A DNA stretch of 64,000 nucleotides from Daphnia pulex. Lineage: Eukaryota > Arthropoda > Branchiopoda > Diplostraca > Daphniidae. Below the pieces are notes generated by a model, which saw only the letters and a list, made by a program, of their open reading frames with translations, did not search any database and was not told the DNA's origin. Shown here piece after piece: positions 6,506-62,946 of this stretch; the first letter of the stretch is position 1; each line of letters starts with the position of its first letter. Made by a program: the position numbers and the translations under genes. The stretch spans positions 12,887,001 through 12,951,000 of the forward strand of contig NC_060026.1 in the NCBI RefSeq assembly GCF_021134715.1. Reading direction: 5' to 3'.

Positions 6506-7312
6506 ACTGTAGGCAGCGTACGTACGCCGCAAGGTACCCGAAGGGAATGTTAAGGGTATTCTAGTTGGTATAGTAGTATTGGTATAGTTTTACAAAGACA
6601 GAGCTATAGAATAGTTATAGAATAATAAAAATATTCTGTTATAAAGGTAGGCCTATTATTAAGATGGATTAATAACATTTTAAAAAAATGTATGCCCTTA
6701 GTTTCCGGAAGATTGTAATAAGCAAAAATCGAGAAAGGGATTAAAAGAATATTTCCGCATGTTTCTATCCAAACATTAAATAAAAATTAAATTCCAAAAA
6801 AACCTAATATGATATGGCGCGGCGTAAGGGTAAGGCGTGACTTTGGTGCGGCGGAGGCTTCGCCCCGCCACCCCACGTCACACCGGATCTTGTTAAAATT
6901 AAATTTAAGTAACTACCTATCAGCACTTCTGTTACTGGAGATTGATAGCTTTCGGTGATAACATACAGTGACTTCTATTCTATCATACAATAGTAGTCGA
7001 TTGTCACGTTACGTTTATATCCCTGTCACATGTCTCTGTATTATCGTCTGCTGTCACAGCTATTGAAATTCTGTCAAAAAGTAACCAGAACTCCGTTTTA
7101 TCAAATGCCTGAATCGATTGCAGCTAAATTTTCAGAATAGATGTAAAAAATTGTAAGCTACCGATTACTGCCATTGAAATGCAATAAAATTGTTGATTAC
7201 AATCAATAATTGCCAAAAACTAGTGGATCCATCTATGTAGTGTTACGAGAACTGAGGGTGCCCATGTAAACCATACTGCCAACGAAACTTTGACCAGTAA
7301 CCCTTCGGGTAA
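6506..7312. repeat. 807-bp dispersed repeat, copy A
   Basis: Nearly identical to 61311-62116, differing by scattered substitutions and one-base indels. The shared block begins actgtaggca and ends cttcgggtaa. It has no long ORF. Features: a palindrome gcgtacgtacgc near the left end, a GC-rich hairpin about 6848-6875, and an 11-bp motif tacccgaaggg near the left end that recurs inverted (cccttcgggta) at the right end. It looks like a non-autonomous mobile element; the class is unresolved because I see no clean terminal repeat or target duplication. Confidence 0.85.
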
Positions 7313-35425: not shown

Positions 35426-37024
35426 ATGCGGTTACACGTCAATAAATTATTCAACAGCGCTCGTCTAGTGGCTCAATGGCGACTATTCAAGATCGCTCTA
35501 GTCTTGGTGGTGATTGGCGGCGTTTTCTACACAACGCAATCGGCTCTTACAAGAAACAGTGTCGAGAGTTCAGTTTCTTCTTTAATTCCAGCATCAGCAG
35601 TCATAGATATCTTCTTTAATAACCAAGTAAGTCAACTTAAACCTTCGATTTTACGTGTTTGTTATTTTGTTGAAGTCTATACAGTCAGTGTGTGCATATT
35701 ATACTTGTCCGGCTGTATTTTTGAAGGTCGTTTTTGGGTTGTAGCTCGAGGAAATTTAAGCCACTGAATCCCAACTATATAATTAACGAAATAAACTACT
35801 CTGTCTAAAAATGAATCTCGGGGTTGCATGCTGGACCTGTCATATCAGAGAATAGAAGCCCTCAGGATATTTAAGACGGTGGAGAAATGATTTTCTAAAC
35901 TATTAATTTGAATGCAGGATACCCCAGTGGAAGAAGAAATTGAAGAAGAAGAATTCCAAGAGGATGCCAATCGTTTGAAAATCATTTTGTACTGGAACGA
36001 ATGGGATTCCGTCATGGGAAATCAGCCGCTAATCGACGGATTATGTCCAGTCACTTCCTGCATCTTCACGCCGGATCGATCGCTATTAAATCACAGCCAC
36101 GTCGTTCTATTTTTCGCCAATAATGAAACGAAACTTAACGACGCCTTGCCCGAATATCGACAGCCTCACCAGCGGTTCGTCTTTGTGGCCCGCCACGCCA
36201 GCATCGAATTGGATAGTTTAATATCCGCACTAACCGAAGACGATCGCATCCGGTACAACTTCTTCAACTGGACCATGACGTACCGTCGTGACTCGGATAT
36301 TGTCTTCCGTGAATCCTTTGGAGCCATCAAAAATGCGCCGGAATTGATGGGTCGAGGGAGGAAAACTAAGAAAATGTTTTCACCGCTCCAGCTGATGAAG
36401 AGACCATCCGTCAGAGCTCGGGCCGTGTCCCGGATCGGTTCCAAAAAGAAACTGGTAGCTTGGTTCCCGAAACAATGCCACACTTCCGTCCGTCGGGAGG
36501 AATACGCCCGCCAATTGGGCCAGCACGTTCCGGTTGACGTTTACGGCCAGTGCGGCAATTTGTCGTGCGATTTCGAGTGTTACCAAAACAGTTTCAACAC
36601 GATCCGGGCCGACTACAAATTTTATTTGGCGTTCGAGGAGTTTTGGTGCGCCGATTACGTCACGCCCGAGTTTTACAAAGTGCTGGATTACGACACCGTG
36701 CCGATAGTTTTGGGCGGAGCCGATTACGAGGCTCTGGCGCCACCAAATTCCTTCATCAACGCGCTGGATTTCCCGTCGGCCGGAGCTTTGGGCCAGTACC
36801 TTTTGTTCCTGGACCGGAATCCGGAATTCTATTCGAAATATTTCGAATGGAAGAAAGACTACCAAGCGGTTCTCTCTCCCAAAAGTGGCTGGTGTGACTT
36901 GTGTCGAATGGCTCACGACGTCAGTTACAAGCCGAAAGTTTACAAAGACATCAAAAACTGGTGGATTGACGAAGTGAAATGTCAGAACGATTCGACGGGA
37001 ATTTTACCGCTCGTGAAAATGTGA
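35426..37024 (+). CDS. Alpha-1,3-fucosyltransferase A (GT10)
   Basis: Transfers fucose from GDP-fucose to N-glycan core or antenna GlcNAc in the Golgi. Exons 35426-35626 and 35918-37024; 435 residues. Cytosolic basic N terminus, signal-anchor helix (about 23-42), acidic stem rich in Glu, then the GT10 fold. Diagnostic blocks: NFFNWTMTYRRDSD in the donor-binding region, then YKFYLAFEEFWCADYVTPEF and VPIVLGGADYEALAPPNSFI near the C terminus. The basic insert KKMFSPLQLMKR between the two blocks is not in the neighbour. It is followed 1.1 kb later by a paralogue with the same exon 1/2 boundary. Confidence 0.93.
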
Positions 37025-38114: not shown

Positions 38115-39456
38115 ATGGGCTCTAGAAGCATCCTGGAACGTGGCACAATGAGGAAAAATGCGTTGATCAAACTTAACTTTGCTACTTTTGTCATCTTTGT
38201 AACCGCGTGCCTCCTCTTGTTGATTTATCATCAAAATGTCGACAAGAAATCAAATGTTTTTACTTATCCCAGTCGTGTGTTTCACACCGACGAATCTCAG
38301 GTTTGCTCTTTAATTCAAATAAAATTATTGGCTGATTATTGAAATCATCTGAATTTTTGCTGCAGGATTTAAAAGAGGATCGCTACGATTACAATGATCT
38401 AACACCAGTTGTAAATTCATCAGACAAACCACCACTGAAAATCATTTTACTGTGGAACGCAATGACTCCGGAGCTCTCCAACAATCCGTTCATCACATTC
38501 AACTGTCCCGTCACTTCCTGCCTATTCACGGCCGACATGTCGCTCCTCCGGCAAAGTGAAGTCGTCCTCCTCCGCATCGACACGTTGGAAGACATGCCGT
38601 TGAACCGCCAACCGCATCAGCGTTTCGTTTTCCTTCACATCGAATCGCCAATCAGCACCAAATTTTCCATCATGGACAACCCCCGTTTTCGCTACAATTA
38701 CTTCAACTGGACGATGACCTACAGGCGTGACTCGGACGTCTTTCTCCGGGATTATTACGGCTCTGTCGTTAACAAGTATACTCACTATTTCACTATCATT
38801 TTTGTTTCTCTTTTAAATTTGATCATCAATATTATATCAATAGGACGAAATTGGCGAACGATCCGGACGGGGATGCGGAACTGGCCGCAATTATCCGAGG
38901 GAAAAGCAAGTTGGTTACTTGGTTCGTGAGCCACTGTTCCACACAAATCCGGAGAGAAGAGTACGCCCGCCAGCTGGGCCAGTATGTCCCCGTCGACATA
39001 TTTGGCAACTGCTCGAGTGAATGCCCGTACGATTGCTATGCCATGTTGCGCGCCGAATACAAGTTCTACCTGGCGTTCGAAAATTCTTGGTGTCCCGATT
39101 ACGTCACGGAGAAATTCACCAGGCCCTTGTTTCACGACGCCGTCCCGATCGTCCTCGGCGGCGCCGATTACAGTCATTTCGGGCCGCCTCATTCTTACAT
39201 CAACGCCAGAGATTTCGCTTCTCCCAAAGCCCTGGCGGATTATCTAATCTTGTTGAACAATTCCGACACGCTGTACGCCAGTTATTTTGACTGGAAAAAA
39301 GATTTCAGAGTCGTCAAGACTGACATGTCGGGTTGGTGTGACTTGTGCCAATTGGCTCACAACGAGAGTCTACCGTCCAAAGTTTATCCGGATATTAAAC
39401 GGTGGTGGATGTTGGACGAATCGGAATGCGAGTATAATTCAACCAAATATTTTTAA
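38115..39456 (+). CDS. Alpha-1,3-fucosyltransferase B (GT10), tandem paralogue
   Basis: Same role as gene A. Exons 38115-38300, 38366-38775, 38844-39456; 402 residues. Signal-anchor helix at about 20-38, short stem, then NYFNWTMTYRRDSD, EYKFYLAFENSWCPDYVTEK and VPIVLGGADYSHFGPPHSYI. YVTEK is the classical GT10 form, whereas gene A has YVTPE. Gene B has an extra intron inside the catalytic domain that gene A lacks, and a shorter stem. The shared first intron position and blocks show a tandem duplication, followed by intron gain or loss. Acceptor preference may differ. Confidence 0.93.
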
Positions 39457-40352: not shown

Positions 40353-40661
40353 TCAACCAAAAAGCCAACGGGAGAATCTGGAACTCATCCTGCCAGCAGG
40401 CTCAGCAGCACGACTCAATCGAACTAGACGGTAGTTAACGACGATGCTGGGCAGAGTTTCCGCGTAGTCCCAAATCTCGTGCTCATCGTTCTGGGCTTCG
40501 GTCAACAAAAATACGCCAGCGACAACCAACACGACAAGTACAAGAATTCCCTGTTGAATCAGAACATTTACAATTTAATAAAACTCTGCTGCTCTTTACT
40601 CTTTTAAAAGTAGTGATAATTATTTTGCATGGCTAAGCAAAAATATTACCTTATTGCTCAT
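40353..40661 (-). CDS. Small secreted peptide ending FSRWLFG, copy 1
   Basis: Two exons, 40661-40650 (MSNK) and 40550-40353, giving 69 residues. A signal peptide of about 23 residues (hydrophobic ILVLVVLVVAGVFLL) is followed by a mature part of about 45 residues with conserved blocks IWDY, IVVNYRLVRLSRAAEPA and SRFSRWLFG at the very end. No Cys. A TATA box lies 110 bp upstream. The paralogue at 62667-62946 shares exon structure and most mature residues. I recognise no known family. A C-terminal Gly after Phe would allow amidation if a secretory amidating enzyme acts, which suggests a peptide hormone or effector, but this is inference. Confidence 0.75.
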
Positions 40662-40770: not shown

Positions 40771-40778
40771 TATTTATA
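40771..40778 (-). promoter_or_regulatory. TATA box of small peptide gene copy 1
   Basis: Minus-strand TATAAATA, 110 bp upstream of the ATG. The same box with the same following bases (cgaagctc) precedes the paralogue at 62564. Confidence 0.7.
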
Positions 40779-49699: not shown

Positions 49700-51675
49700 T
49701 TAGTTTTTCATGTAAGTGTTAATCCAATTCCTAAAAAAAGCCACATTGGCGTAAACAGCAGGAAATGACGGATCCGCACAGCCTGCATAGCAAATAGATA
49801 AATGTCGAAAACAAAATTTAATGAGAAATATTACTGAATACTAATGCAAACTAGGGCACATGTTACACCGCGTTTAAAAAAGGGAGAAAAAAATCACAAG
49901 AACATCTCATCTCACAGTAGATGATAGCCTACCGATTCCAAAGCTGACAATGCCGGCCTGTTTCCAAGATCCGTTTGGGTTTTGAACGACAATTGGCTCA
50001 CCACCATCTTTCTAAAAAAAAAAAAAATTTGGCTAATTAGTATATTGGTAAACATGAGTTTGGTAATTCGCGTGTGTGGAAAGTAACAAGTACATATATT
50101 TGTACATATTTTGTCAAGTTCAGGTTAAGTTGTAAAATGTCTTCTTACAGTGCAAGGGCCTTTTCCATCAGCTGCTGCACAGAAATGCTGGGGCCTGATA
50201 AAGTTTTCATATGGAATATTACAGGCAGCGTTGGAAATAATCTTGACAGTTGCTTGTTGCAGAGTATCGGATAAGGGTCCATCTAGAACAAAAATAAACA
50301 CCGTGAGGCGTGAACCGATAGAATTAATGCAATGTAGAAATGTGAATAATGCGACTAAGAATCTTTTTTCGAGTCGCGCTTCATTTTTTACTTTAAATAT
50401 CACTAAGGACACTACTTTTAAAATAATCAACTACGTCTTAATACCAGATGTTAAATATCCCCATCCCAGGACGGCACCATCTAGGCCGATGAATTGATCA
50501 ACGGCGTTATTAAATGGTGGCAAACAAACGGGTGAAATGGCAGCCGAGTAAACGATGTCTGGGGCTACTGTCAAGACGGCAATGTTATTGACCTGCAACA
50601 AACCAACGTAAAATCAATAGACAGATAGCGCAACAGATATACAGTTGCTTCAGTGTGTTCACGTCATTCAATTTAAATAAGGTAAAGTTAATTAAACAAT
50701 TATCTATATGAAGATCAAAACTGTCAAAACAGACTCGCAATACTCACTGCTGTATTTGTATTGAAAGCATTGTGGTAGACAACGCGAGTGACTCTCCTGG
50801 TCATCTGTGCGTCGTTGTTCGTGTCTGGGAGAATTCCCTGGACGTGCATGCCAAGGCTCACAGTCATTGTCGAAATGTCGTACGTCGATAGTCTGAAATG
50901 AAATCGGCAATTTATTAGAATCACCCAACCAATAGATTTAATCTTCCTTCAAATGAAATGTCTTACTCGTTCACGCAGTGAGCCGCTGTAAGGATTCTCG
51001 TCGGGGAAATTATTGTTCCTCCGCAAAACACACCGGTAAATCCTGCTTTCCTCAGACCCACCTGAAATATAAATTGAACAAAAAAAGCCAACAATCGTCG
51101 CTACGTTGTAAAATTTAAATGTTCAAAAACTTACGATAAACGGCCACGAATTAGGGGTGGCTTCCGATCCACCGACAACGCCGACTGTTGGGGTTTTACG
51201 TTTCGGTGGTGAAGCAGGTCCGACACCACAGGCAATTTTCTGCTGCTTAGAATCAGATGAAGTTGCTGTAACGTTTTCAACATCAGAGAAGCTGCTGGCC
51301 GGCTTGTAGAGCGGATAAGGCCATAACGGAAAGTTGGGGTATGGCTGGGAAGAGAGGCCAATGTACGGATTAACTGCATACGTCATCGGGACTGGTGCAA
51401 GATTTCCAAAGTTGCGACTTGCAAAATTGCTGGGTCCCACACCGTCAACTGCACATAATTTGCATAACAGGAACGTCACACAACAACTTACGATTTGAAA
51501 AAATTTAACGAAGAAATAATTGTATACGAATTTTAAATTAAATAGTCGAACCTTCAATGACGACGGCATCGTTCGTTTGATAAATGCGGCTGCTGGCCGG
51601 ACAGACGGAGAATAGAAGAAGATGAAGAGCAGCAAAGAAGAAACCTGCTAGATGTTGGAGTAATGACATTCTCAT
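49700..51675 (-). CDS. Serine protease homologue 2 (catalytically dead trypsin-like)
   Basis: Exons 51675-51552, 51448-51135, 51061-50967, 50892-50748, 50592-50445, 50282-50149, 50011-49933, 49782-49700; 373 residues. Signal peptide, then a prodomain of about 110 residues rich in Pro/Tyr/Ser ([17 protein letters not shown]), then the S1 fold from [14 protein letters not shown]. His57 is kept (LTAAHC). Asp102 is Asn (VNNIAVLTV), and the GDSGGP box reads KDGGEP, so Ser195 is Gly. The S1 Asp189 is also lost (GKGPCT). The usual Arg before IVGG is missing (TVGVVGG). It should not be a protease; such homologues act as binding or cofactor proteins in arthropod immunity. Start: the first of two in-frame ATGs (MRMSLL). 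Confidence 0.88.
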
Positions 51676-54648
51676 CACCTTAAAGTTTGAAGGCGTCTGA
51701 ATTTTTCTTCTCGAGTCTCGTTCCTTTTATTCCGGGATCGCAAATATTGAGAAAACGCCCTAAAATCTCCTCAGGGAATGGGCACTAACGTTGTTGAATT
51801 CTTTCTGATTTTGCCATATATTTCTTGTTTTAACGGTGACTAACGAAGAGTGAAATGGGAAGAGCGATAGGGAATTTCTCAAATGTTTCCTTTTTCTTGT
51901 CACATTTGAGTCCTTATTTCAAACTTCCGTTTTGATCTAACCGATAAAAAAAAGAAAATATTAATTTAAACATAAAAATGAAGATGTAGACGCGTAAATT
52001 TTAGTCGTGGTCTACATAACTAGTCCGACGTTCAAAACTTTTTTCATCCATCCCCTTCTGTTCAACGGTTGAAAAACATGAATGCTCCTCAAGACTCGAC
52101 ATTGATAAATGGTGCACACGCTTGCGGGCAAAGCACATTATTTTCATACATATGATCGAAGAAAATATCTGATTTAGCTTTTCCTTATTTGTGCTATGAA
52201 CTGCCAGGATCAACCTTGAAGGTCCCATATACAAACATCTGTAAATGACAGTCTTAACCGGTTCAAGTTGCGATGCTTATATTCACCACAGGATAAAAAC
52301 TGCAGAATTCAAACACAAAACGAAAGCAGATTCTTGATTAAATTTTAAAGGCGAAGCAAAGTTCAGAATAGCTTACGCAGAAAGTTTCCTCTCTAACTGT
52401 TGTCGATGTCGCCTCCGTCACATGCATTGACACTGTCGTAGTCTACGGATTCGGCCGGATAATGGTCTCTTTAGCCTCGGTTTTCGGCGTAGACGAAGCG
52501 GATGAAACTGGTGGCCTGGCCGGTGGAATGCTCCTATTGCGGACACTTTCCCGGATTATTTGTCTTCCTGCGTGAAAGGCTCTGGCTGATTAGTGATTCT
52601 CTAGTGAATTGCTCAAATGCTATACACATAAAAATAAATAAACATTCATTTGTTATTCGAACCCTTGACATATCATTGTGGATTAAGTTTACCTTCTTGA
52701 TTACAAGTATCTCAACGTAGATCTAGGACGAACGTTTTGGCATCTAGGCGCAAGAAAGTTGCCTATTACTAGTTAGGACGATCGATTGAGAAGAGACTAT
52801 TTCCGGTTGGCGTGGATTACCGGAATCTAGAGGCTATACTAATTGGACGGTAACATAGAATAAAAAAAGGTTTTCAATCCATTCAATTCAGTTCAAATTT
52901 CCGGAAAATGTTTTCCTTACCTGTAGCATAGGGCCAGGAAGGTCAACTGGACTATTAGACTTGATCTACTGGATGAGAGGTAATTCAGTTGGGATATTGA
53001 TCCCAGACATCTGCTCCAGATTATTGTGTGACAGCTTCACCTGGTAACAAGCTTTGCAGTTAATTAGATCCAACAAAACAAAAATTTTCAATAAATGGAA
53101 AAAATTAAAAAAATACACTCTAAAATATTTAAATTTAAAAAATAAACATTTTTAGGAAAGATGATCTAGGCATCTTAGATGCCATTGCCATTTAACTTAT
53201 ATTCTAGGTAACTAATATAAGTTAAAATAACCGCAGAGCTTTCATAGACTGCTGATGGACCATTAATTTGACACTCAGAGCAACTTTACTCAAATAATAC
53301 TGTTACTAATAAATGTTTACTATGAAGTTTTCAATAGTTCTCCAATAATAACTACAACTATTAAAATGTCATGTTCACAAAAAGTATGTGTAAAAATTCG
53401 CACTTGACGTTCAACTTACACCAGGGGTATGGAGAGGATCTCTCCATGCCCATGCTTACACCAACTACAACTAATTTAAGAGAACGTAGATGATCAACAG
53501 ATGAATCATAAAATGTGGCCACTTAAACATCTAAAGGTCACTTTTGTTACCCAGTCTGAATAATGAAAATAACAGAAAACGGACTAGACATCACACACCA
53601 AGATTCAAGAAGATTGAATCGTGAATGACAGCACTCAGCAGCCATCTTGATAGTACAGAGTTGCCAATTTATTTCATTAGACGCAATCGGCAAAGACCAA
53701 AGACCAAAGCACCAAAGCACCAAAGGTCAAAGCAGCAGTGCAGCACCAAAGCCTGAAAGCACTAAAGCAGGGGTATGGAGATTGGAGAGATATTGCGAAT
53801 TGGAATTTGGAGACGGAGACGGAGTTAAAGAAAGGATATAAAAAAAATGAAAATAAGAAGAGTATTTCCATAACTCTGTTCCGGACATCATTTATCGATT
53901 ACAAACCATAGGTAATAGACAGTTTCTATACCCCTGAATAATCGAGTTTCTCAATTCAAGAATCAAGAATTAGTCTATGCCGTATTTTGACTTAGCGATT
54001 CCTTAAATGATACACAACTACCTATTAAGCACAGTCCAATCCCCATTGTAACCAACTTCCAGGCACATAAATATGAAAATAATGCGCTTTACATGCGATG
54101 GATACAACTTCGTCATTTATTAATTACTTTCAAGTGAAAAATATACACCAGATCAGTGATCTTTCGAAGTCCGCTCTCCATCAATGGGCCTTAAACCTTA
54201 TTGTCCATTTTAAAATTCTAAAACAGTTCAACCCAATTTCTTTCATATGTATTTTTGTATGCTCGACTTATCCCATTCTATTCAAATCAGATATTTAAAC
54301 AAAAATATAATAAATGAATAACCAATATAGAAATGTTGGATTGTATGAGTTTATTTTTTTGAGGAAGAAATTGGAAGAAAAAACTTTTTTTAAAGTTTAT
54401 AAGTAAAAAGGACTAACGGAACAGCCATTGAATAACAAAATTATCAAGGTCATATAATTTATTTAAGAACACAAATTATCCGTCAACTTTCCGACACAAA
54501 AGTGATGAGAATCAATTTAGTCTTTTTAATCTGGGTTTCAACTTTCAAAATGATCATAGAATATAGATACCGCAGTACATATCCGTGTCGCCTGAGCTTC
54601 GGAAGTATTAGCTGGTATACCAAAGTCTCGACCAAAGTGCATGGCGTT
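51676..54648. other. 3-kb spacer between the two protease homologues
   Basis: The first 1 kb (to about 52720) is paralogous to 56598-57600, showing the duplication took in the upstream region. Farther on is a short imperfect repeat of accaaag units near 53690-53770 and a palindrome aacttatatt...aatataagtt near 53197-53225. No gene supported. Confidence 0.5.
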
Positions 54649-56597
54649 TTAGTTTTTCATGTAGGTGTTAATCCAGTTCCTGAAAAAAGCCACACTGGCG
54701 TAAACTCCAGGATATTTTGGATCTGCACAGCCTTCGTAGCGAATAGAAAATACGAATATTAATTTTTTTGAAAAACGATATCGACGCCAACTTATGTAAA
54801 CTAGAGCGCAAGGGGGAAAAACCGAAAAATCACGAGAACATTTTCACTGTTGATGTAATAAATAGCCTACCGAATCCAAAGCTGACAATGCCGGCCTGTT
54901 TCCAAGATCCGTTTGGGTTTCGAACGACAGCTGGCCCACCGCCGTCGTTCTAAAAAAAAATAACAGACACCATTTAGCTAATTAGAATATTGGGAAATGT
55001 GCTCCAGTTTTGCAATTTACGTGTGTGGTAAGTAACACGAACACAAATTACGTGTGCTTCTAATTTTTGTAAAGTTCAGATTAAGTTTTCAAATGTCTTC
55101 TTACTTTGCATGCGTCTTTTCCATCAGCTGCTGCACAGAAGTGTTGGGGACTGAGATTATTTTCATATGGAATATTACAGGCAGCGTTGGAAATAACTTT
55201 GACAGTTGCCTGTTGCAGAGTATTGGACGCTTCTCCACCTAGAACGAAAAAGAACGGATGTGAACCGATATTATTAATGCACCGTAGACATGTGAAAAAG
55301 TGACAAAAGAATGAAGATTTTTTTAGTCGCGCTTCACTAGGTAGTTTCAACATCAACTAATTAATACCCGATGCTAAAGTTCCCCATCCCATGATGGCCG
55401 CATCTTTACCGACGAATTGATTGGCGGCGTTATTAAATGGTGGCAAACAAACGGGCGAAATGGCAGCTGAGTAAATCAAGTCAGGGGTTACCGTCAAGAC
55501 GGCAATGTTATTGACCTGCAACAAACCAACGTAAAGTCAATAGACAGATAGCGCAACAAATATACAGTTATTTGAGGGTGTCTAATTCTAGTGATAAACA
55601 GTATATCTAAACAAGGGATATCGATATGAACGTTAAAAACAGACTCGCAATATACTCACCATTGTATTTGTATTGAAAGCATTGTGGTAGACAACGCGAC
55701 TAACTCTCCTCGTCATCTGTGCATCGGCGTACGTGTCTGGGAGAATTCCCTGGACGTGCATGCCAAGACTCACAGTCATTGTCGAAATGTCGAACGCCGA
55801 TAATCTAAAATAATTGCAATCAGCAATAATTGAGAATCACCCCAATAATAGATTTAATCTTTCCTCAAATGAAATGTCTTACTCGTTCACGCAATGAGCC
55901 GCTGTAAGGATTCTCGTCGGGGAAATGATTGATCCTCCGCAAAACACACCGGTAGATCCTGCTTTCCTCAGACCCACCTGGATTATGAGTCAACAACAAC
56001 AACAGTTCAACCATCGCATCATCATTCCGTTGCAATTGAAATGTTCAAAAACGTACGACAAACGGCCAAGAATTCGGGGTGGCTTCCGATCCACCGACAA
56101 TCCTGACATCTGGGAAGGAACGTTGCGGTGGTGAAGCAGGTCCGACACCACAGGCAATTTTCTGCTGCTTAGAATCAGATGAAGTTGCTGTAACGTTTTC
56201 AACATCAGAGAAGCTGCTGGCCGGCTTGTAGAGCGGATAAGGCCATAACGGAAAGTTGGGGTATGGCTGGGAAGAGAGGCCAATGTACGGATTAACTGCA
56301 TACGTCATCGGGACTGGTGCAAGATTTCCAAAGTTGCGACTTGCAAAATTGCTGGGTCCCACACCGTCAACTGCACATAATTGGCATAACAGGAACGTCA
56401 CACAACAACTTACGATTTGAAAAAATTTAACGAAGAAATAATTGTATGCGAATTTTTAATTAAATAGTCGAACCTTCAATGATGACGGCATCGTTCGTTT
56501 GATAAATGCGGCTGCTGGCCGGACAGACGGAGAATAGAAGAAGATGAAGAGCAGCAAAGAAGAAACCTGCTAGATGTTGGAGTAATGACATTCTCAT
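54649..56597 (-). CDS. Serine protease homologue 3, tandem paralogue of 2
   Basis: Exons 56597-56474, 56370-56057, 55977-55883, 55804-55660, 55515-55368, 55238-55105, 54949-54871, 54731-54649; 373 residues, exon for exon the same lengths as gene 2. The signal peptide and prodomain are nearly identical to gene 2. Differences: it keeps an Arg activation site ([18 protein letters not shown]), keeps Asp at S1 position 189 (GKDACK), and its catalytic box reads NDGGGP. Ser195 is again Gly and Asp102 again Asn (VNNIAVLTV), so it is also predicted inactive but still cleavable at the activation site. High identity of exon 2 against lower identity of introns suggests selection or gene conversion. Confidence 0.88.
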
Positions 56598-58122
56598 CAC
56601 CTTAAAGTTTGAAGGCGTCTGAAATTTTCTTTTCGAGTCTCGTTCCTTTTATTCCGGGATCGGAGAAAACGCCCTAAAATCTCCTCGGAGAATGAACACG
56701 ACTAACAGACTTACAGTGTTGAATTATTCGCCTATTTTGTTAACAAATTCTTGTTTCATAGGAAAAAAAAGACTAACGACTATGGTGAAATGGGAGGAGC
56801 TTTAGGGAATTCCCCAAACGTGTTTTTTTCTTGTCACATTTTATTCCTAATTTAAATCTTCTGTTTTGATCTGAACGTTAAAAAATATTAATTTAGACAT
56901 AAAAATTAAGATGTCGACGTGTAAATGTTATCATGGCCTACTTAACTCTCTTAGGCCGGTGTTCAAGACTTTTTCATCTTTCCCTGTTCAACAGTTAAAC
57001 AATGCGAATGCACCTCAAGACTCAAGACATTGTTAATGGTCGCAGAAACTAAAATCAAAAGCGTGGTATTTCATTTTTTCAATAATAATATTAGACCACA
57101 TTCCCAGACGGAAGAAAATATCTGATTGAACTTGTTCTTGTTTGTGCAATGAACTGCCAGGATCAACCTTGAAGGTCTTACATAATAAATGCATCTGCAA
57201 ATGAAAAAAAAAATGGGTAAACCAGTTTCGACTTTATACCTGACTGACGACTCAATACGTGTAGTGCATTAATTCCCCCCCCACCCCCAAAAAATTAAAA
57301 AATAAACAAAAAATCGACGATAATAATAAACCGGTTCACGTTGCGGTGCTTAAATTCACCAGGTTCAAAACATCAGCATAAGTCAAACCAAAAAATGGAA
57401 AGCAGATTCTCGATTAAATTTTACAGGCAAAGCCCACTTCGTCTGAATAGCTCAAAGTTTCCTCTGTTGTCGTCGGTGTCATTGTCCCTTCTGCGGATGA
57501 ACCGGCAGAGTCGAAGTGCTGGATGGAACCGGCGACTCGGCCGGTGGAATACTCATATTGCGGACTTACGGATTGTCTTTAGGAAGGCGTTGCAAAATAC
57601 AGCGGCGTAGAACAAAAAAAAAACGAAAAAATTATAATTAATAAAAGACAGTTACATATAAATAGTCTAAATACATATAAAATGCATAAGTAACATGTAA
57701 ATGATAAAAATACGCAAAGATATGAAATAACGCCTCTTTTTCCTTCCGCGTATAATCGCGTGGTGGACTTCGATTGACGAAACGCGTCCGGTTGCTGCAA
57801 CTCGCTGCAACTATCTTTAATCCCCGTTTGGCGATTCAGTATACATTCGCGTTCCTCGTAGTGCGAATGCGTGCGCACATTATTTTCAAGTTTCAAATCG
57901 ACCGATCTGTTCCATCATCAAGAGTTTTTTTTAGAACGTCCATCGCAGAACTTCTCCCATAAAAGTAAATCGAGTTAATTTTTATGAAATTATTTACTTA
58001 AATCATTGACATGTTTTTGGTGTTCCTTATTCTGTATCTTGTCGTTATTTTGTCCGGATTCTTTGATGAGTAAATCTTTATCAGATAAGTCAATTAAACA
58101 GGCAAATAAAGAAGCATCAACG
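56598..58122. other. Upstream region of protease homologue 3
   Basis: Paralogous to 51676-52720. The minus strand has an open exon-like frame about 57414-57575 (RVAGSIQHFDSAGS, then TPTTTEETLSY, ending CKI stop) whose counterpart upstream of gene 2 is broken by stops. Its host gene is unknown. C-run near 57278. Confidence 0.4.
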
Positions 58123-60426
58123 ATGCATCCAGTGACAATATCTATCACCTTCTTTGCTGTATTCACGACGCTGGCAACTACTACGTCTACGGCGTCTAAC
58201 GAACAGATTGATTTAGCCACTTTAAAATGTAAAAAAACTAATCATTCAAATTCTAGTGAAATTTAATTTGTGATGAATTTTTTTATATTTTGCAAACACA
58301 ATAGCCGCCGTTCAAAAATTGGAGAAGGAATCTAAATGTATTTTCTTTTTACTACTTGGCATCAAATTGACGAAATAAGTAAACCACTAAACTGACATAA
58401 GCATTTTTTCCCTTCCAGCTCTGCAAGATTTGGTAGGAAAAATGGATCTCAAAGAGATATCAGACGGTATATATCAATACAAAAAATATTTCGTATTTAA
58501 CTGTTAAACTAAACGTTTCATATTGTGCACTACAGGTCTATCAACAAATTCAGAGCGTTTAGAAGAAACGAAATTAGAAATCAAGAATTTGAAGAAGGAG
58601 TTAACAGGTGATTTGGATTGATTCAAAAAATATTTAGTGGGCTTAAAAACGATCTTTTGCTTCAGAAACAAAGAGTGTAGCTGAAAAGTTGAAGATGGAA
58701 TTGGCCGGTGATATTTTTTATTATAATAATTCAGAAATGATTTCGAACTAAACAATTCCTTACATTATTTTTAGACACAAAAAAGGAGTTACTCAAAATT
58801 TCACAGGATTTGACAATGTCGAAGAGTAGTCTTTTAAATCAGTTGAATGGTTTACAAAAAGGTTTGATTTTAATGAAAAAAATAATTAAGAAATTTAGGT
58901 GAAATGAAAAGTAAATTTAATTCTTAGATACTAATAAGGAACTGAACGTCGTCAACACGACAATGCGTAATTTGGCAAAGGAAATGAAAGGTACCATTCA
59001 GAGATAAATAATTTAAGGAATATTTACCGCACTTAACATACGTAATTTCTTTCGATTTCAGAAATTTCGGTCGGTTTTGAAAATAAGTATTCCGCATTAT
59101 CTTCCGAACTTCAGGTCACAGCTGCTAATTTAACACAAGATTTACACGGTAATTAGAGTAAACTGCTGTTCTAAAAATCTTTCCTTAAAACACTACGTAG
59201 TACGCCTGTGAAACGAGAAAATTTGGAAAGTTGTCGCTCTGAGACTCGGCAAAAAAAGTTAAAAGGAAAAAGAGTATTCGATTGGAATAGTCATTAGTCA
59301 GCTATCAACTTGTTATTTCTCTCTTTATTTGCTGGGTTAGAAACTGACCTGAAAATTGATATCACGACATCAGTAATGCTCAAACTTGAGGAATCTTCCC
59401 AACGATCAGCTGCCGAAGCTAACATCGCTTTAGAGAATTTAACGGAGGAATTACAAGGTAATTTTTTTCGAGATACATGGAAAGAAGTAGTATTCTATAA
59501 TTCATCAATCGGAGTTAACTGAAATGTCTTACTATTGCAATAGAGAAACTTGCAGCCAATAAGCAAGAGTTGGACGAGGTAAAGATCAAAGTTGGAAATT
59601 TGACAACGGACCTGAAAGGTAAATAACAAAACATGGAATGTATCCTGAAAAATTTATCCCCCCCCCCAAAAAAAAATAAATATATATTACCCCCACATTA
59701 TTACATCCACATTAACTTTTCAATTTTTTTTAACTATCAGCTAGAACGAGCGAAATAGTAGACATTGGTAAAATTCCTACATCCTGTTCTGATCTGCAAC
59801 AAATCGGATACAAAACAAACGGACTATTTTCTGTAATGGGAAACACATCGGTGGAAACCGTTTACTGCAACTTCCATGCCAAAGAAAAGGGTACACAATT
59901 AATTACATTCGAATTTTATGCCTTTAATTAAATTCTTTTGATATTAGATTTGCAGAAATGGATTGGATCGAACGACATCAAGTCGGTGCCGACCTATTTC
60001 TACGCCACGAGAATCACCCCATTTTCAACGTTAAAAACTCCAATTCCATTCGACCTGGCCAAAGTCAACATCGGAAACGCCATGGAACTGGCGTCGGGGA
60101 AATTCAGGGCACCGAGATCAGGGATTTACTTCTTTTCTTTCACGGGCCACGCCCTTTTCCCTCAATCTGTTTCCGAGGTAGAATTAGCGGTGAGTCTTTA
60201 CCTGAACGGCAATCGAGTCGGCTGGGCGGAGGTAGAAGAAACCAACACCTCCGATGGCCAATTTAGTCCGTTGACCCTCCAGTCGACCATCAACTTGAAG
60301 GCGGGCGATCAAATTTGGCTGCAGATCGTGTCCATTTCAGAAGGAACGGTCCTGTTCAACGCACGAAATCATTACACTCATTTCACAGGGTGGATGTTGG
60401 AGGAAGATATTGTTGCGTCACTGTGA
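58123..60426 (+). CDS. Secreted coiled-coil C1q-domain protein
   Basis: Twelve exons: 58123-58228, 58305-58337, 58419-58466, 58536-58607, 58666-58707, 58775-58861, 58928-58990, 59062-59148, 59341-59457, 59544-59618, 59741-59890, 59948-60426; 452 residues. Signal peptide (ISITFFAVFTTLATTTS), then about 205 residues of heptad-like coiled coil coded by small exons (LKNLKKEL-type ends), a Cys-containing module of 50 residues (SCSDLQQIGYKTNGLFSVMG...TVYCNF, about 244-293) and a C-terminal C1q jelly-roll (about 294-452) with SGIYFFSFTGHALF, LYLNGNRVGWAE and HFTGWMLEED. All 11 introns are phase 1. C1q-domain proteins are soluble recognition lectins or adhesive proteins in invertebrates; coiled coil plus C1q predicts trimers. 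An upstream in-frame start near 58006 is less likely. Confidence 0.88.
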
Positions 60427-61310: not shown

Positions 61311-62116
61311 ACTGTAGGCAGCGTACGTACGCCGCAAGGTACCCGAAGGGAATGTTAAGGGTATTCTAGTTGGTATAGTAGTATTGGTATAGTTTTACAA
61401 AGACAGAGCTATAGAATAGTTATAGAATAATAAAAATATTCTGTTATAAAGGTAGGCCTATTATTAAGATGGATTAATAACATTAAAAAAAAATTTATGC
61501 CCTTAGTTTCCGGAAGATTGTAATAAGCAAAAATCGAGAAAGAGATTAAAAGAATATTTCCGCATGTTTCTATCCAAACATTAAATAAAAATTAAATTCC
61601 AAAAAACCTAATATGATATGGCGCGGCGTAAGGGTAAGGCGTGACTTTGGTGCGGCGGAGGCTTCGCCCCGCCACCCCACGTCACACCGGATCTTGTTAA
61701 AATTAAATTTAAGTAACTACCTATCAGCACTTCTGTTACTGGAGATTGATAGCGTTCGGTGATAACATACAGTGACTTCTATTCTATCATACAATAGTAG
61801 TCGATTGTCACGTTACGTTTATATCCCTGTCACATGTCTCTGTATTATCGTCTGCTATAACAGCTATTGAAATTCTGTCAAAAAGTAACCAGAACTCCGT
61901 TTGATCAAATGCCTGAATCGATTGCAGCCAAATTTTCAGAATAGATGTAAAAAATTGTAAGCCACCGATTACTGCCATTGAAATGCAATAAAATTGTTGA
62001 TTACAATCAATAATTGCCAAAAACTAGTGCATCCATCTATGTAGTGTTACGAGAACTGAGGGTGCCCATGTAAACCATACTGCAAACGAAACTTTGACCA
62101 GTAACCCTTCGGGTAA
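61311..62116. repeat. 806-bp dispersed repeat, copy B
   Basis: Nearly identical to 6506-7312, same orientation. It interrupts the inverted duplicate: flanks on both sides (cgggcctttgaattg to the left, gattcagctgg to the right) align with about 41070-41330, where the element is absent. This approximate empty site supports a mobile insertion. Confidence 0.9.
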
Positions 62117-62563: not shown

Positions 62564-62571
62564 TATAAATA
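62564..62571 (+). promoter_or_regulatory. TATA box of small peptide gene copy 2
   Basis: TATAAATA, 103 bp upstream of the ATG at 62667; same box and downstream bases as copy 1. Confidence 0.7.
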
Positions 62572-62666: not shown

Positions 62667-62946
62667 ATGAATCCCAAGGTATTGTTTCTTCTGCTTAATA
62701 ATTGAAAAAAGACTGAAGAGTAATTTTATTCAATTGTTAATTCTTATTCAACAGGTCATTCTTATTCTTCTCGTGTTGGTTGTCGCTGACGTATTGACGG
62801 TCGCAGCCCAGAACGAAAACGATCAGATTTGGGACTACCCGGAAACTGAGCCCGGCATCGTCGTTAACTATCGTCTAGTTCGATTGAGTCGAGCTGCTGA
62901 GCCTGCCATGATCGGTTCCAGATTCTCCCGTTGGCTTTTCGGTTAA
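62667..62946 (+). CDS. Small secreted peptide ending FSRWLFG, copy 2
   Basis: Exons 62667-62678 (MNPK) and 62755-62946; 67 residues. Signal peptide VILILLVLVVADVLTVAA, then a mature region with IWDYPETEPGIVVNYRLVRL, SRAAEPA and C-terminal GSRFSRWLFG. Compared with copy 1 the mature blocks are almost unchanged while the signal peptide and introns differ, which suggests purifying selection on the mature part. No Cys, no dibasic site; single Arg residues (VRLSR, GSR) could be processing points. It lies between the C1q gene and a trypsin gene. Function unknown. Confidence 0.78.

What the first reader, a model, noticed from the sequence alone, without database searches (positions are those of the whole stretch)
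62667..62946. Novel small secreted peptide family with conserved C-terminal FSRWLFG
Two intact paralogues (40353-40661 minus, 62667-62946 plus) have a signal peptide, no Cys and a strongly conserved mature part ending in Gly after Phe. Both have the same TATA promoter. Neighbouring duplicated genes decayed while both peptide ORFs stayed open, implying function. An amidated ...RWLF-amide would be a new-looking peptide.
Basis: partly seen in the sequence, partly recalled or inferred. Interest (0 to 1): 0.75.

Follow-up and report, generated by a model that had tools for sequence, protein, structure and literature searches.

The report
Amidated-looking secreted peptide family, Daphnia-like genome
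A water-flea-like genome carries a family of at least seven small secreted proteins that all end in the same short motif (RF..WLFG or RF..WLYG), which looks like a peptide signal cut off and capped at its end, but nothing here shows that it is made or what it does.

Summary
The window has two intact spliced genes (A: 62667-62678 + 62755-62946; B: 40661-40650 + 40550-40353, minus). The same genome has five more: C, 8 kb past the window; D on another contig; E and F 1.2 Mb away; and G, a chimera in which the last ten residues (RNRFPGWLYG) sit on a different secreted precursor. One probable remnant was also seen. All seven end in R-F-x-x-W-L-[F/Y]-G-stop. A to F share a tiny M..K first exon, a phase-0 intron, a TATA box, a hydrophobic start, a Gln at the predicted mature start and an R-x-x-R site. 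The final motif looks constrained (omega 0.19 for the last 9 codons, a stretch chosen after seeing the alignment; G against E: 7 differences, all synonymous). Pfam and PDB give no relative; the held open-access texts do not contain the motif. Most likely it is a lineage-specific precursor of a C-terminally amidated signalling peptide; a cationic antimicrobial peptide is the main rival. Expression, processing and amidation are untested.

The parts
62564..62570 (+). TATA box of gene A
   Evidence: Sequence; aligned at the same place in B and C; TATATAAAG upstream of D, E and F.
62667..62678 (+). Gene A exon 1 (MNPK)
   Evidence: each of A-F has a first exon of 3-5 codons ending in Lys.
62679..62754 (+). 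Gene A phase-0 intron, GT-AG, 76 nt
   Evidence: same position in B-F.
62755..62946 (+). Gene A exon 2: rest of the signal peptide, mature part and stop
62809..62811 (+). Gln 23, predicted first residue after signal cleavage; Gln in A to F (possible pyroglutamate)
   Evidence: Alignment; cleavage site inferred.
62872..62892 (+). RLVRLSR: overlapping R-x-x-R (furin-like) sites; at least one R-x-x-R in each of A to F
   Evidence: Alignments; cleavage inferred.
62917..62946 (+). SRFSRWLFG-stop: conserved C-terminal peptide with Gly as possible amidation donor
   Evidence: omega 0.19 for the last 9 codons over A-F.
40353..40550 (-). Gene B exon 2 (C-terminal SRFSRWLFG at 40356-40382)
40551..40649 (-). 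Gene B phase-0 intron, 99 nt
40650..40661 (-). Gene B exon 1 (MSNK)
40772..40778 (-). TATA box of gene B
   Evidence: Sequence; aligned to that of A.
59938..60426 (+). C1q-domain ORF upstream of A (neighbour in the duplicated block; core not found beside B and C)
   Evidence: Pfam C1q E = 6.6e-17; tblastn.
61311..62116 (.). Dispersed repeat between the C1q ORF and gene A; not part of the peptide gene
   Evidence: 98.4% identical to window 6506-7312; 65 matching pieces listed genome-wide.

Best explanation
A multigene family of short secreted precursors. Step 1 (inferred): the signal peptide is removed, in A-F before an N-terminal Gln. Step 2 (inferred): the acidic spacer is cut off at R-x-x-R, and in D, E, F and G a cut after the Arg before N-R-F frees an 8-residue peptide; in A, B and C the released piece is probably 16-17 residues (AAEPA...SRFSRWLF). 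Step 3 (inferred): the terminal Gly is turned into an amide, giving (N/S)RF(P/S)(G/R)WL(F/Y)-amide. Step 4 (inferred, weakest): the peptide acts outside the cell as a signal, most likely on a receptor that reads R-F-x-x-W-L-aromatic-amide. Shown: seven intact genes, the shared architecture of A-F, conservation of the C-terminal end, and its presence on a second, different secreted precursor (G).
For: Seven genes from protein and pattern searches. RFPGWL[FY]G occurs at 4 places in 133 Mb (reversed control 0), each followed by a stop. G is a paralogue of YGYP-rich secreted genes up to about YGVNA but ends in RNRFPGWLYG; its last 11 codons differ from E at 7 of 33 bases, all synonymous (2 of 200,000 random trials). 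Omega over A-F is 0.516 (vs 1: p = 0.003), last 9 codons 0.19 (p = 8e-5; stretch chosen after seeing the alignment). A-C mature part: 1 of 132 sites differs against 131 of 858 in flanks. The Gly before the stop is kept in 7 of 7 while the residue before it is F or Y. Copper-monooxygenase C-terminal domains, the family of the amidating enzymes, are in the genome (14 exon-level matches), not resolved to PHM.
Against: No expression, peptide or receptor data. A-B and B-C look near-neutral overall (0.81, 0.96) and so does the last-14-column stretch in A-B (0.80), D-E (1.05) and D-F (0.77); within-clade omega 0.695 is not distinguishable from 1 (p = 0.18). F has lost the last Arg of R-x-x-R-x-x-R. 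Only D has a dibasic site (KR); A, B and C have no basic residue at the cut position of D-G. Several paralogues, a fast-changing spacer and a basic second half also suit an antimicrobial peptide. The A-C likeness may partly be gene conversion (synonymous sites 2 of 31 against flank 131 of 858, p = 0.13).
Confidence: 0.5

Rival explanations
1. A lineage-specific antimicrobial peptide family: acidic propiece plus basic, tryptophan-containing, amidated C-terminal half that acts on microbial membranes.
For: Acidic part (-5 in A, B, C; -2 in D; -1 in E, F) followed by a basic part (+3 to +5) (the dividing point is mine); A, B, C lie next to C1q and trypsin genes or their remains; near-neutral within-clade rates. 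A survey of D. [quoted passage not shown]
Against: No C1q protein match in the 10-kb stretches around D and E/F. The exact C-terminal words are kept across deep divergence and on a second precursor, stronger word-for-word conservation than a membrane-active peptide usually needs (general knowledge, inference).
Confidence: 0.27
2. A small secreted protein used whole (for example in gut, cuticle or peritrophic matrix), with the WL[F/Y]G end as a binding motif rather than an amidation site.
For: The G precursor belongs to a YGYP-rich secreted family that looks structural (by eye); only D has a dibasic site; no Pfam domain.
Against: Gly as the very last residue in 7 of 7 genes, and R-x-x-R before it in A-F.
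Confidence: 0.15
3. Decaying duplicates with no present function; open frames in A and B are leftovers.
For: A-B dN/dS 0.81, Fisher p = 0.38; the frame survives substitutions alone in 10.6% of neutral simulations, and A-B amino-acid identity (48 of 67) is not significantly above neutral simulation (P = 0.08); a probable decayed member exists elsewhere.
Against: Coding indels among A, B and C are multiples of 3 while flanks carry many others; A-C omega 0.06 (p = 0.003); last 9 codons omega 0.19; mature part more alike than flanks in A-B (p = 0.04), B-C (0.022) and A-C (3.5e-8).
Confidence: 0.06

Closest known systems
Leucokinin / insect kinin (FX1X2WG-amide)
   Same: F-x-x-W spacing and, if amidated, an amide end (definition read in passages of PMC7913504).
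   Different: Here W is followed by L-F or L-Y before the amide, not G, S or A; the LK precursor is reported missing in Daphnia (same passages).
AKH/RPCH family
   Same: Amide end and a Trp near the C-terminus; P-G-W in D-G (the decapod form ending SPGW-amide is recalled).
   Different: AKH/RPCH is 8-10 residues with pGlu at 1, mostly Phe or Tyr at 4 and Trp at 8 (passages of PMC5537346); here the peptide ends its precursor, W is third from the end of the amide form and no pGlu starts it.
SIFamide
   Same: Phe-amide after an aliphatic residue (SIFamide sequence recalled; passages of PMC3462748, describe the family without the sequence).
   Different: In SIFamide the peptide follows the signal peptide directly (recalled); here it ends the precursor. 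No alignment was attempted.
Amidated cationic antimicrobial peptides of crustaceans (recalled)
   Same: Acidic propiece, basic end, small multigene family.
   Different: Very short conserved end, no Cys in the mature part, no Pfam family matched.

Membership tests
Neuropeptide / peptide-hormone precursor (general) | Signal peptide | tested here: inconclusive
   Strong hydrophobic N-terminus in 7 of 7, Kyte-Doolittle 12-mean 3.21-3.61; no trained predictor available.
Neuropeptide / peptide-hormone precursor (general) | C-terminal Gly available for amidation | tested here: met
   Gly just before the stop in 7 of 7; amidation itself not testable.
Neuropeptide / peptide-hormone precursor (general) | Convertase cleavage sites before the peptide | tested here: inconclusive
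   R-x-x-R in A-F; dibasic KR only in D; single Arg before NRF in E, F and G; none there in A, B, C.
Neuropeptide / peptide-hormone precursor (general) | Mature peptide more conserved than the rest | tested here: met
   Last 9 codons omega 0.19 against 0.52 (signal) and 0.62 (middle); G shares only the end. Against: last-14-column pairwise values of 0.77-1.05 in A-B, D-E, D-F.
Neuropeptide / peptide-hormone precursor (general) | Expression in neurons or endocrine cells, receptor | not testable with these tools
   No expression data.
Leucokinin | FX1X2W followed by G, S or A-amide | tested here: not met
   W is followed by L[F/Y]G-stop in 7 of 7.
AKH/RPCH | 8-10 residues, pGlu start, aromatic at 4, Trp 8 | tested here: not met
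   By eye, no Gln-started 8-10-mer with Trp 8 followed by the amide signal in A-F (sequences) or G.
Antimicrobial peptide | Acidic propiece and basic mature part | tested here: met
   Charges for A-F; G not computed.
Antimicrobial peptide | Microbicidal activity or induction on infection | not testable with these tools
   No activity or expression data.

The most novel reading that the evidence does not exclude
A peptide-hormone family that arose within this lineage rather than from any known arthropod precursor, and whose mature word (RNRFPGWLY-amide) came to lie on a second, different secreted precursor, so that two unrelated kinds of gene feed one receptor.
Probability: 0.28. Interest if true: 0.75.

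Novelty: new member of a known kind. Interest (0 to 1): 0.5.

Why it matters
Arthropod neuropeptide sets are described as nearly closed: a comparison of decapods and insects says that novel neuropeptide genes seem all to have come from existing ones by duplication, though the same paper names hyrg as a likely novel precursor (PMC4888303, passages). A family with no recognised parent, in what I take to be a Daphnia genome, where antimicrobial peptides were reported as not recovered (PMC2685406, abstract and passages), would be either a new hormone or a new defence peptide, and the C-terminal word gives an exact synthetic peptide to test.

Tried and rejected
Pfam gave no family for A, B, D and E at E up to 10 or for F and G at E up to 0.01; C was not scanned. 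A profile search of PDB gave only two weak hits, E 0.32 and 0.5. No relative was found in bacterial and archaeal genome contigs (query D) or viral contigs (query A), as expected of an animal gene. Motif text searches gave nothing (one search asked for the motif together with other terms). No other crustacean genome was available. The two D. pulex peptidome papers (Dircksen 2011; a 2011 Gen. Comp. Endocrinol. paper) were seen only in reference lists, so an earlier description there cannot be excluded.

The looser pattern F..WL[FY]G-TRR has 52 sites (reversed control 11): 7 are the family and 1 the probable remnant at C2:7925741. In one search I read 7 loci (the remnant, G and five others) and the five had no signal-peptide ORF of this kind; the other 39 were not read, but by eye all end in TGG, which is not a stop. 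The remnant (L021) rests on local similarity to F, D and E (scores 66.5, 42 and 35 against best-of-500 shuffles 33, 31.5 and 30); its exon 1 was not looked for. blastn of window 38001-64000 against the D and E/F stretches found nothing, but it missed the peptide genes too, so it says little about shared neighbours. No structure prediction was run: the pieces are short and only the two window proteins were clearly allowed.

Full report
Where it is. The window is G000:C10:12887001-12951000 of a 133.19-Mb, 13-contig assembly. From its size and genes I take it for Daphnia pulex; that name is my inference and comes from no call.

The observation. Gene A is 62667-62678 joined to 62755-62946 and gene B is 40661-40650 joined to 40550-40353 on the minus strand; both introns are GT-AG and phase 0. 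Read without splicing the A interval stops at codon 13. Products are 67 and 69 aa and end in SRFSRWLFG.

The family. Protein searches with A, B, D and E and three motif patterns give seven intact genes: A, B, C (exon 2 at C10:12958715-12958903, 7.7 kb past the window), D (C2:8394024-8394194), E (C10:11723131-11723301), F (C10:11719596-11719766) and G (C4:241618-241830). E and F have an exon 1 reading MNK, D one reading MIK, each with TATATAAAG upstream. Each of A-F has Gln at the predicted mature start, at least one R-x-x-R, and a C-terminus RF(S/P)(R/G)WL(F/Y)G. R-F-x-x-W-x-[FY]-G-TRR has 8 sites, 7 of them these genes (the eighth, on C9, was read and has no such ORF), against 2 in the reversed control. 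Searches by protein are stated by the tool to give lower bounds for large families, so more members may exist.

The chimera. By DNA, G is like four neighbouring or related YGYP-rich secreted genes of C4 (loci L049, L050, L051, L052) from the promoter into the start of exon 2, and by protein up to about YGVNA (exactly so in L049 and L050). Its own end is GGDINRNRFPGWLYG. blastn of the G locus against the E/F stretch gave nothing better than E = 0.027. The last 11 codons of G and E differ at 7 of 33 bases with no amino-acid change; random placement of 7 changes gave that in 2 of 200,000 trials. Whether the end was captured or converged, the amino acids are what is kept.

Selection. Pairwise dN/dS: A-B 0.81, A-C 0.06, B-C 0.96, D-E 0.59, D-F 0.53, E-F 0.40; between the two groups 0.17-0.37, with synonymous sites near saturation and A-D not computable. 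In the last 14 alignment columns taken pairwise, A-B is 0.80, D-E 1.05 and D-F 0.77, while A-C and E-F have no amino-acid change. The nine-codon stretch was chosen after seeing the alignment, and these values come from six short sequences and a home-made fit, so they are approximate. Against non-coding flanks the mature part (residue 24 on) differs at 16 of 132 (A-B), 1 of 132 (A-C) and 15 of 132 (B-C) sites, flanks at 133 of 710, 131 of 858 and 135 of 716. Synonymous against nonsynonymous change alone: A-C p = 0.003, A-B p = 0.38. Neutral simulation at the A-B flank rate does not reject neutrality for total amino-acid identity (P = 0.08), but leaves the last nine codons and stop unchanged in 0.9% of trials (again a stretch chosen after the fact). 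Nonsynonymous changes between A and B are clustered outside two long unchanged runs (281 of 20,000 shuffles as extreme). Part of the A-C likeness may be gene conversion.

Surroundings. A, B and C lie in copies of one block, B inverted. The C1q core is intact beside A, not found beside B and cut to 15 residues beside C. The trypsin gene downstream of A (Pfam) is left beside B as two short pieces whose reading is broken across frames. An 806-base dispersed repeat sits upstream of A. No C1q match lies in the 10-kb stretches around D and E/F, which suggests, but does not prove, that the peptide gene rather than the block is the lasting unit.

Mechanism. Shown: genes, architecture, conservation of the end. 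Inferred: signal cleavage, cutting at R-x-x-R and at the Arg before NRF, amidation, extracellular action. I favour a receptor-directed signal because the exact end, not just its charge, is kept and reused; an antimicrobial peptide remains a serious rival because of the acidic-then-basic layout, the paralogue number and the reported failure to recover known antimicrobial peptides in D. pulex.

Known families. The F-x-x-W spacing recalls leucokinins, whose precursor is reported missing in Daphnia, but the residues after W do not fit. AKH/RPCH does not fit by layout. No membership is claimed.

Noticed in passing
window 61311-62116 and 6506-7312: Dispersed repeat, 98.4% identical copies in the window, 65 matching pieces listed genome-wide, a lower bound; not classified.
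   Followed up: partly
window 49700-57200 and from 63280 past the window end: Array of related trypsin-like genes (Pfam Trypsin for pieces of the copy at 63.3-64.5 kb); the pieces at about 49.7-52.2 kb and 54.6-57.2 kb are 84-94% alike with a 4.9-kb step.
   Followed up: partly
G000:C4:241618-248810 and 345356: Cluster of YGYP-rich secreted proteins with no Pfam match (one such member tested), from which the chimera G derives.
   Followed up: partly
G000:C2:7925741 (L021): Probable decayed member of the peptide family with in-frame stops and similarity reaching into the 3' flank.
   Followed up: partly
window 35912-37024 and 38851-39456: Two fucosyltransferase (glycosyltransferase family 10) ORFs in tandem, E = 2.9e-56 and 1.8e-60.
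   Followed up: partly
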